From: a virus
Virus record (IMG/VR): IMGVR_UViG_3300023245_000106
Location: 1-24,788 of that record
Length of the DNA: 24,788 nt
Reading direction: 5' to 3' (one strand)
Below the pieces are notes generated by a model. The model worked only from the letters and a program-made list of their open reading frames with translations. It was not told the DNA's origin and ran no database searches. Within the stretch, counting starts at the first letter, position 1. Each line of letters begins with the position of its first letter. Positions 9,060-24,788 of this stretch are shown in pieces. A program made the position numbers and the translations under genes.

Positions 9060-9476
9060 TTAGTTGAACTCCTTTAGGTAAGTAATAATGTTTGTTAATC
9101 GTTTCATATCTTCTCTAGCATTTCCTATAGTTGCATTACAATAGTGGCATAACAAAGCTCTTACTTTGCCTGTCTTGTGATTGTGGTCTATATGTAATCT
9201 TTTAACTTGCGTATCTTTATGAATTTTACAAATATAACAACAATCTTTTTGTTCTGTTAACATTGTATTATATTCAGTTAAAGTAATACCATAGTTTTTC
9301 ATCATTGCTTTGTTTGCTGATTGGTCTTTATTCTTAGCATAATACTCTCTCATAGCAGATTTTCTTTTTTCTGAATTATTATATTTTGCTAATGTTTCTT
9401 TTCTTCTTGCTGGGGTTGTTCTTATTTCTCCAACTTTGTATTTTCTAGTCCCATTGGGACTTCCTAATCTACTCAT
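9060..9476 (-). CDS. HNH endonuclease, endonuclease VII family
   Basis: The C-terminal half is a recombination-endonuclease-VII-type His-Me domain: C80-x-x-C83 and C110-x-x-C113 zinc ligands, with the catalytic HIDHNHKTGKVRALLC core between them (D97, H98, N99, H100). The N-terminal half is basic and helical (KRKSAMREYYAKNK), typical of free-standing members. Such genes are often homing endonucleases lodged between conserved phage genes; here it sits between gp55 and gp47. It has its own exact late promoter and a good ribosome binding site (AAGGAGT). It could instead be the phage's own Holliday-junction resolvase (T4 gp49 is of this family), but it lacks the long C-terminal part of gp49. Confidence 0.8.
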   Translation of the reverse strand: MSRLGSPNGTRKYKVGEIRTTPARRKETLAKYNNSEKRKSAMREYYAKNKDQSANKAMMKNYGITLTEYNTMLTEQKDCCYICKIHKDTQVKRLHIDHNHKTGKVRALLCHYCNATIGNAREDMKRLTNIITYLKEFN

Positions 9477-22911: not shown

Positions 22912-24788
22912 CTAACTGCCCTTATGTACGACTGGATGCCATACTGTACCATATTCATCTACTTCCGATTTCTCATGGTCTGGTGTTCCGTCATCTACAA
23001 AGCCAAAAGGTGCCATATCCTGTTCAATTAAATGTTGCTGTTCTTCATATAACATTTGTCTTGCGTTAGTATCTGTCAGTTCTTTAAAGAAAGGTTGATT
23101 AGATAACCAACCAAATATAACTAAACACATCATCAAGTCATCATTAGCACCATCATCTGCTTGCCAACTTTGACCTTTTCTAATAAAGGTAGACATTTCT
23201 TCTATAATATTGAAGTCTTGTATTATTACCTTATCACTTTCAATAAGGGTTTTGATGTTAGCACAACCAATTTTTTTAATTTGTTTAGTCATCTTAACAC
23301 CAAATCCCGAACCTCTCCCACTAAAGCCAGCTCCCAAAATCTGACCCGCTCTTCCTCTTTGTGTTGTCATCAACAAATTATCATACTCTAATTCAAACTG
23401 TAGAGCTTCTGCAATCTGTTGACCTAAATCGTTTGTTTCTACCAATACATGTGCATGATTAAATGCTTTACACACCTGGTCAATTGTATGTGGAAATAGT
23501 AATGGTCTAATTTCATTGTTACGAAACTTTGCAACAATTCTAAATGGCATTTGTGTTACATCTAATATTAAAAATGCTGAGTAATCTTTTGATACACCTC
23601 TGGCGACATCAACTGTACAAACATATGTATTACCTTTAATAGGGTCTTCGTATACATCTAATCCAGCGTTTGACTGAATAGGATTCATGTATGCAAGTGT
23701 TTTAATTTTAGAAGGATTAATAAGTGTGTTTACAGAACCTAAAAATTCACAATTATGAGAAACAACACCGTTAGTAATATATAAGTTTTCTTTTTCTACA
23801 TTTATAGGGTCATATAAAAATATTTTTTCATTAACCAACTCATTATATAATACTTTTTTACTACTTAAATAATCTCCTACTTTTACATTTCTTGCTAATA
23901 TTTTATCTTTACCAAAAGGATGGTTAATAGAAGTTTTTATTTCAGATTTATCATCAAAGATAATATGCTGATAAAGGTTTCTTTTAACCTTTTGTATACC
24001 ATTAAAATTAGAAAATCCACTTGTACTTAATATTTTTATATTATCTGTATTAGTTCTAAACATTTGTCCAACTCTTTTTTTCAACAATTTTTTATATAAA
24101 TCTTCTATTTTTATTTTACCATCTTCCGTTTCAACTATCGTATTACCGTCAACACATTCAAACTCTTGTTGAAACTGCTCAGCTGAGGTGTTTCTTATTG
24201 TTGCTTCTTTCCAAGCTTCATCTCTGCCTGGCACCTCTGACCAATGCACTTCAATTGGCACATAGTCATTTCTTTTATTCTCTGCGTCTGTCCATAATTT
24301 GTAAAACTGATTCATACCATATGGTGTAGATACAATAATCATTTTAGTTTGTGTACCAGCAGAAATTGTAGGATAAACAGCACTAAAGAATTGCTCGGCA
24401 ATATTAGCAGGTACGAAAGCAAACTCGTCAAGGAAGATAATGTTGTAAGAACCACCTCGAATAGCACTTGAAGATGTTGCAGCCGCCACAATGACTGATT
24501 TATTTTCTAATTCAATATTACCTTTGTTCCAGTTAATAACTCCTTGTTGCATCCACTTTGGTAGATTTTCATAAGCAAGTTGTACTCTACCTAAGATATC
24601 TCTAGCAGTAGATGATTTGTTTGCTAGAATAGCAATATTAGAGTTAGGATTAAATAGGGCGTAATGTAATAGATATGATACAGTAGTGGTAGATTTACCC
24701 GACTGCCTAGGTAGTTTACAAATTGTGAAACGATTGTCATGGATTGTCCTTACGATATGTCTTTGAAATTCGTACATTTTAAATGGCA
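22912..24788 (-). CDS. 17: gp17, terminase large subunit, intein-containing, 5' end outside window
   Basis: Packaging motor ATPase and nuclease. Numbering from the ATG at 24777: Walker A LPRQSGKST (22-30), Walker B IIFLDE (113-118) and coupling motif IVSTPYG (148-154). The RNase-H-like nuclease residues lie in VDVARG (D390), VETND (E447, D450) and ANDDLMM (D546, D547). The frame stays open to the window edge (codons for Pro-Phe-Lys precede that ATG), and only about 20 residues stand before Walker A where T4 gp17 has about 160, so the ATG at 24777 is almost surely internal. A 135-residue intein (C208-N342) interrupts the conserved QEFE/CEF sequence just before the nuclease domain; without it the visible protein is 486 residues. 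gp17 docks on the gp20 portal and pumps DNA into the head. Confidence 0.95.
   Translation of the reverse strand, partial: PFKMYEFQRHIVRTIHDNRFTICKLPRQSGKSTTTVSYLLHYALFNPNSNIAILANKSSTARDILGRVQLAYENLPKWMQQGVINWNKGNIELENKSVIVAAATSSSAIRGGSYNIIFLDEFAFVPANIAEQFFSAVYPTISAGTQTKMIIVSTPYGMNQFYKLWTDAENKRNDYVPIEVHWSEVPGRDEAWKEATIRNTSAEQFQQEFECVDGNTIVETEDGKIKIEDLYKKLLKKRVGQMFRTNTDNIKILSTSGFSNFNGIQKVKRNLYQHIIFDDKSEIKTSINHPFGKDKILARNVKVGDYLSSKKVLYNELVNEKIFLYDPINVEKENLYITNGVVSHNCEFLGSVNTLINPSKIKTLAYMNPIQSNAGLDVYEDPIKGNTYVCTVDVARGVSKDYSAFLILDVTQMPFRIVAKFRNNEIRPLLFPHTIDQVCKAFNHAHVLVETNDLGQQIAEALQFELEYDNLLMTTQRGRAGQILGAGFSGRGSGFGVKMTKQIKKIGCANIKTLIESDKVIIQDFNIIEEMSTFIRKGQSWQADDGANDDLMMCLVIFGWLSNQPFFKELTDTNARQMLYEEQQHLIEQDMAPFGFVDDGTPDHEKSEVDEYGTVWHPVVHKGS
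23752..24156 (-). other. Mini-intein in gp17
   Basis: The 135-residue insert begins with C208 (CVDGNTIVETEDGKIKIEDL, splicing block A). Block B is the SINHPF region (S283, H286; Ser in place of the usual Thr). Block F contains VKVGDYL and the LYD aspartate. It ends GVVSHN with penultimate H341 and terminal N342, and the next residue is Cys343. All residues needed for standard protein splicing are there, and removing it rejoins QEFE to CEFLGS, a normal terminase sequence. It is too short for a homing endonuclease. The DNA is markedly AT-richer than its host gene: 26 G+C in 120 bases at 23761-23880, against 24 in 60 bases at 23641-23700. Confidence 0.93.

What the first reader, a model, noticed from the sequence alone, without database searches (positions are those of the whole stretch)
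23752..24156. Endonuclease-free intein in the packaging motor
A complete mini-intein sits at a strictly conserved point between the ATPase and nuclease domains of gp17. All splicing residues are visible (C1, block-B His, block-F Asp, HN/C end), and the base composition differs from the flanks. Without an endonuclease domain its persistence needs an explanation: recent loss of the endonuclease, help from an endonuclease in trans, or a timing function in which packaging waits for splicing. Block B carries Ser where Thr is usual.
Basis: partly seen in the sequence, partly recalled or inferred. Interest (0 to 1): 0.75.

Follow-up and report, generated by a model that had tools for sequence, protein, structure and literature searches.

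The report
Split intein naturally fused back together
A self-removing protein insert in a marine virus's DNA-packaging motor is a close relative of a well-known two-piece ("split") intein, here rejoined into one piece by deletion of the selfish nuclease gene that separates the two halves in related viruses, which indicates that intein splitting can be undone in nature.

Summary
A 135-codon intein occupies exactly 23752-24156 (-) in a T4-type terminase (gp17/TerL), with C1, S76-x-x-H79, D116, H134-N135 and C+1 in place. Empty-site relatives align straight across QEFE|CEFLG; the closest is 95-97% identical in DNA. It is a contiguous version of the AceL-TerL/Cat natural split inteins (PDB 6dsl, E 1e-40). 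At the same site, 76 of 98 distinct inserts are split inteins with a spacer of homing-endonuclease size between the halves. Others are split with the spacer deleted, and six are contiguous. The window sequence equals L003 (split plus HNH endonuclease) minus 590 nt, 391/405 identical. The 21 nt joining its halves are, base for base, the 3' end of that endonuclease gene read in another frame. A tree nests the window among split inteins. So the likely history is: split intein, deletion of the endonuclease gene, restored frame, cis-splicing mini-intein. A packaging-timing function is neither needed nor supported. Block-B Ser is normal for this family and is present in the active Cat intein. Splicing itself was not tested.

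The parts
23752..24156 (-). Contiguous mini-intein, 135 codons, C1 to N135, in gp17/TerL
24085..24156 (-). Segment homologous to the separate N-intein (IntN, 24 codons) of split relatives; contains C1
   Evidence: identical in protein to IntN of L003, L005, L017
24064..24084 (-). Scar: TTGAAAAAAAGAGTTGGACAA, 21/21 identical to the 3' end of the homing-endonuclease gene of L003, here read in another frame as LKKRVGQ; falls in the least confident loop of the model
24083..24086 (-). Inferred deletion joint (590 nt absent relative to L003; 2-nt microhomology GT)
23752..24063 (-). Segment homologous to the separate C-intein (IntC, 104 codons beginning ATG TTT) of split relatives; contains block B (S76-H79), block F D116, H134-N135
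   Evidence: 90-95% identical to IntC of L003, L004, L007, L008
23920..23931 (-). Block B S-x-x-H (Ser76, His79)
23809..23811 (-). Block F Asp116
   Evidence: invariant
24157..24788 (-). N-extein: gp17 ATPase domain, runs off the contig end; ends ...QQEFE
   Evidence: Pfam Terminase_6N
22912..23751 (-). C-extein: CEFLGSVNTL..., RNase H-like nuclease domain of gp17, with stop codon
   Evidence: Pfam Terminase_6C

Best explanation
The feature is a cis-splicing mini-intein of the AceL-TerL/Cat family that descends from a naturally split intein. In its relatives the gp17 gene is broken into N-extein+IntN, then a homing-endonuclease gene preceded by a T4-late-promoter-like box, then IntC+C-extein. 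In the window lineage one deletion of about 590 nt removed the IntN stop codon, the promoter-like box and nearly all of the endonuclease gene, ending 21 nt before the IntC start codon. The result happened to be in frame, so the two gp17 halves and the two intein halves became one ORF with a 7-residue linker read from the endonuclease's last codons in a different frame. The full-length precursor then splices itself by the ordinary class 1 route (C1, S/H block B, D116, N135, C+1) to give gp17. Shown: the sequence relations, the scar, the nesting among split inteins, empty-site relatives, and intein DNA much more alike than the exteins. Inferred: that the deletion was a single step, that splicing occurs, and that the element persists because imprecise removal would destroy an essential gene and because an occupied site should resist cutting by the endonuclease of sister phages.
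For: (1) Closest solved relative is the consensus of natural split inteins, 6dsl, E 9.7e-41. (2) Of 98 distinct inserts at this site, 76 are split with total insert lengths of 958-1559 nt; the longest internal ORF overlaps the IntC start codon in nearly all of those listed (L182's is broken). Endonuclease profiles were found in those tested: HNH_3 in L003, GIY-YIG in L015 and VP-1, homing-endonuclease PHROG in L004 and L011. (3) Window = L003 minus 590 nt, 391/405 identical; the 21-nt linker is identical to the L003 endonuclease 3' end. None of 200,000 composition-preserving shuffles reached 21 matches (maximum 18). (4) That 3' end is conserved as endonuclease protein (..GLKKI(I/V)....W.NV*), overlapping the IntC ATG by 8 nt in most loci, so the scar came from the endonuclease and not the reverse. 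(5) Tree: window in a 98/83-supported clade with L003 and L004 (split+HEG), L005 and L008, itself inside a larger split clade (99/96); 7 changes of HEG state needed, at least 5 forced. (6) Other deletions of the same spacer leave their own joints: L008 from an L004-like parent (609 nt), L131 from L107-like (603), L202 from L204-like (585), L183 from L182-like (547), L211 from L110-like (580), L220 from L218-like (560). (7) Mobility: IntC DNA is 96% identical between the window and L003 or L004, while N-exteins are 71-84% and the L003 C-extein 72% identical; the empty-site L024 is 95-97.5% identical to the window exteins. (8) Not a one-off assembly fault: the same joint occurs in two further IMG/VR records. 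(9) Pairwise IntC dN/dS with near relatives is 0.12-0.31.
Against: No splicing was observed. dN/dS values rest on few substitutions and compare mostly split lineages, so they say little about selection since the fusion. L010, a 99% identical allele, has a 1-nt deletion in an A5 run of IntC, probably a sequencing error, but if real it would be a broken gp17. Four other contiguous inteins at this site (L254, L259, L261, L279) have no close split relative in hand and no recognisable scar, so contiguity could be ancestral in other branches. A fifth (L281) lies close to split L181/L187 but its linker does not match their endonuclease 3' end beyond chance.
Confidence: 0.87

Rival explanations
1. The contiguous intein is ancestral; homing-endonuclease genes inserted into it and produced the split forms.
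For: Contiguous members exist in distant branches (L254, L259, L261, L279), and insertion of an endonuclease is the usual account of intein splitting (PMC11766414).
Against: The window is nested among split members; its linker equals the endonuclease 3' end, which is protein-conserved and shared by endonucleases of distant split relatives. May hold for the family root, not for this allele.
Confidence: 0.06
2. A classic bifunctional intein lost an internal endonuclease domain.
For: Common origin of mini-inteins in general (established knowledge).
Against: No member with an endonuclease in frame between both intein halves was seen among 98 inserts; the nearest is VP-1, where IntN alone is fused to the endonuclease. 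The scar is read out of the endonuclease's frame.
Confidence: 0.03
3. The intein is kept as a timing device: packaging waits for splicing of gp17.
For: It lies in an essential motor protein between ATPase and nuclease domains.
Against: The closest relative lacks it altogether (L024); patchy distribution and high mobility fit a selfish element; no regulatory feature was seen.
Confidence: 0.03
4. Assembly chimera or sequencing artefact joining two halves.
For: Metagenomic source; L010 and L012 show homopolymer indels.
Against: Same joint in three IMG/VR records including the window; open 678-aa frame in L002.
Confidence: 0.02

Closest known systems
AceL-TerL natural split intein (IntN 25 aa, IntC 104 aa; PMC11766414); L008/L009 here have this same 25/104 layout
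   Same: Terminase gene, C1/C+1, short N-intein; window IntC about 90% identical to that of L008
   Different: AceL-TerL is two polypeptides and splices in trans; the window is one polypeptide with a 7-residue linker
Cat, consensus atypical split intein (PDB 6dsl)
   Same: 63% identity over the aligned part, same fold in the model, Ser/His block B
   Different: Engineered and split; the window is natural and contiguous
GOS-TerL split intein (Ser1, IntN 37 aa; PMC11766414)
   Same: Same family of terminase inteins; Ser1 split members such as L208, L228 and L234 occur at this site
   Different: Ser1 rather than Cys1; split
'Fractured genes': split inteins with an intervening endonuclease gene (Dassa et al. 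2009, cited in PMC10448857; the paper itself is not held)
   Same: The split+endonuclease arrangement seen in sister phages
   Different: The window shows the reverse outcome: endonuclease lost and halves rejoined

Membership tests
Intein (class 1) | Nucleophile at position 1, TxxH-like block B, C-terminal His-Asn, nucleophile at +1 | tested here: met
   C1 and C+1 in the sequence; S76, H79, D116, H134, N135 invariant or near-invariant in 27 aligned members. Ser replaces Thr family-wide
Intein (class 1) | Hint fold | tested here: met
   AF2 pLDDT 93; Foldseek top matches are inteins
Intein (class 1) | Host gene continuous when the intein is absent | tested here: met
   80/80 retrieved empty-site loci
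Intein (class 1) | Splices | not testable with these tools
AceL-TerL/Cat atypical split inteins | Sequence clade and insertion site | tested here: met
AceL-TerL/Cat atypical split inteins | Encoded as two separate polypeptides | tested here: not met
   single open frame: a contiguous descendant, not itself a split intein
Homing intein with endonuclease | Endonuclease inside or between the halves | tested here: not met
   only a 21-nt remnant of its 3' end

The most novel reading that the evidence does not exclude
First documented natural re-fusion of a split intein: splitting is reversible, because loss of the intervening endonuclease gene recurs at this site and sometimes restores a cis-splicing intein. 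By the same logic the AceL-like short-N-intein alleles (L008) are themselves products of such deletions that stayed split. The retained IntC start codon might still allow some separate C-half to be made.
Probability: 0.6. Interest if true: 0.72.

Novelty: new variant of a known kind. Interest (0 to 1): 0.62.

Why it matters
Split inteins are usually described as the outcome of an endonuclease breaking a contiguous intein. Here several stages sit side by side in closely related viruses: empty site, split intein plus endonuclease, split without it, and rejoined. That makes intein splitting, endonuclease loss and re-fusion directly testable on near-identical sequences, and it gives a natural one-chain counterpart of AceL-TerL, an intein used for protein labelling.

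Tried and rejected
Trans endonuclease within the window: the ORF at 9060-9476 is a phage endonuclease VII relative and shows no similarity to the intein-associated endonuclease; the rest of the genome is not in hand (the record is only this 24.8-kb fragment). RNA element at the site: no Rfam match. tRNA: none. L281 as a second proven re-fusion: its linker does not match the endonuclease 3' end beyond chance (534 of 5000 shuffles as good). A first structure alignment with short IntN rows misplaced them and was replaced. Primary papers on AceL-TerL, Cat and fractured genes are not in the library, so novelty was checked only against held papers; none of the passages read describes a re-fused natural split intein.

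Full report
Observation. The ORF at 22912-24786 (-) is a T4-type terminase large subunit (Terminase_6N and Terminase_6C) carrying a 135-residue insert at 23752-24156, CVDGNT...GVVSHN, followed by Cys. NCBIfam intein N- and C-terminal models pass their cutoffs in the whole protein; Pfam's Intein_splicing model does not. The model fold is confident (pLDDT 93.3, lowest block at residues 21-30) and its best structural match is the engineered split intein 6dsl, then many other inteins. GC is 23% against 34-36% in the exteins. gp17 runs off the contig end; a longer ORF with the same insert is visible in L002 (678 aa).

Host gene without the insert. A search with the joined flanks returned 80 relatives aligned without a gap; all read QEFE|CEFLG. 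L024 is 94.7% (N) and 97.5% (C) identical in DNA to the window exteins and has no intein. The nearest isolate is Pelagibacter phage Mosig EXVC030M at 84% protein identity.

What the insert is. The best sequence match in the PDB is CatC, the consensus of the atypical TerL split inteins AceL-TerL and GOS-TerL (PMC11766414). In IMG/VR the same site holds relatives in several states. Of 98 distinct inserts, 76 are split with a total length of 958-1559 nt, two are split at 617 and 718 nt, 14 are under 600 nt and not open (two of them, L010 and L012, differ from a close allele only by homopolymer indels), and 6 are contiguous. These are counts of retrieved loci, capped at 80 per scan, with a few near-duplicates, and are not population frequencies. 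In the split loci with a long spacer, the spacer ORF usually has a conserved C-terminus whose stop codon overlaps the IntC start by 8 nt. Nuclease domains differ: HNH in L003; GIY-YIG in L015 and in Vibrio phage VP-1; L004 and L011 match a homing-endonuclease PHROG. Domain profiles were checked only in those loci.

Direction. Aligning the window insert to L003 with one block deletion gives 391/405 identical positions and a 590-nt deletion; the 21 nt between the IntN- and IntC-like parts equal the 3' end of the L003 endonuclease gene. That end is conserved as protein in distant endonucleases, so it belongs to the endonuclease. A tree of IntN+IntC puts the window with L003, L004, L005 and L008 (98/83) inside a larger split clade (99/96). 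Hence for this allele the order is split with endonuclease first, contiguous second. At least six other deletions of the spacer are visible next to an undeleted relative (L008, L131, L183, L202, L211, L220); those remained split. L005 also lacks the endonuclease, with a joint less clearly resolved. Two steps cannot be excluded for the window, but one suffices.

Spread. IntC DNA is 96% identical between the window and L003 or L004 although their exteins are much more diverged, and an intein-free near-twin exists. This fits horizontal transfer by homing. Whether the window allele can still spread with a co-infecting phage's endonuclease is untested.

Mechanism. The residues for class 1 splicing are present and conserved. 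The Ser in block B corresponds to Ser75 paired with His78 in Cat (PMC11766414) and is family-wide, so it does not argue against activity. The linker LKKRVGQ falls in the least confident loop of the model, compatible with a tolerated linker. Splicing is inferred, not shown.

Limits. Primary literature on these split inteins was not available; novelty is judged against the held papers only. Calling L008 an AceL-TerL-type allele rests on the 25/104 fragment lengths and C1/C+1 reported in PMC11766414, not on a direct sequence comparison with the published intein. dN/dS values are based on few changes and are not specific to the fused lineage.

Noticed in passing
L003 4402-4430, L004 857-885 and most split+endonuclease loci: The endonuclease cassette begins at the IntN stop with a copy of the TerL junction, roughly GAATGTGAGTTYTTTGG (E-CEF[LF]G), followed in most by the T4-late-promoter-like TATAAATA. 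This may record how the cassette first entered.
   Followed up: partly
L003 4433-5020 versus L004 888-1478: Different nuclease N-terminal parts (HNH in L003, not in L004) on a shared C-terminal part at the same site: apparent nuclease-domain exchange.
   Followed up: partly
L020 (coliphage HY03), L021 (phiS), L022 (JK32): Isolated T4-like coliphages carry related inteins split around a nuclease ORF at another gp17 site, IDE|CAFI; usable laboratory models. VmeM-32 (L019) and SRB7757 (L023) have contiguous ones there.
   Followed up: partly
L018 (Vibrio phage VP-1) 912-3131: IntN fused in frame to a GIY-YIG endonuclease at the window's site; the same gene also has a second, intein-like insert in the Walker A region.
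   Followed up: no
L182: Endonuclease ORF broken by a stop, while the close relative L183 has most of it deleted: looks like decay then deletion.
   Followed up: no
L208 3847-4303: Ser1 split relative on a contig labelled as a Chloroherpeton MAG, resembling GOS-TerL in layout; probably phage DNA.
   Followed up: no
window 9060-9476 (-): Endonuclease VII-like ORF between the gp47-like gene and a gp55-like gene; the neighbours were named by eye only.
   Followed up: partly
L134, L141, L142, L160, L203 and others: The gp17 N-extein is itself interrupted around residue 29 (Walker A region), suggesting a second intein or insert in the same gene.
   Followed up: no
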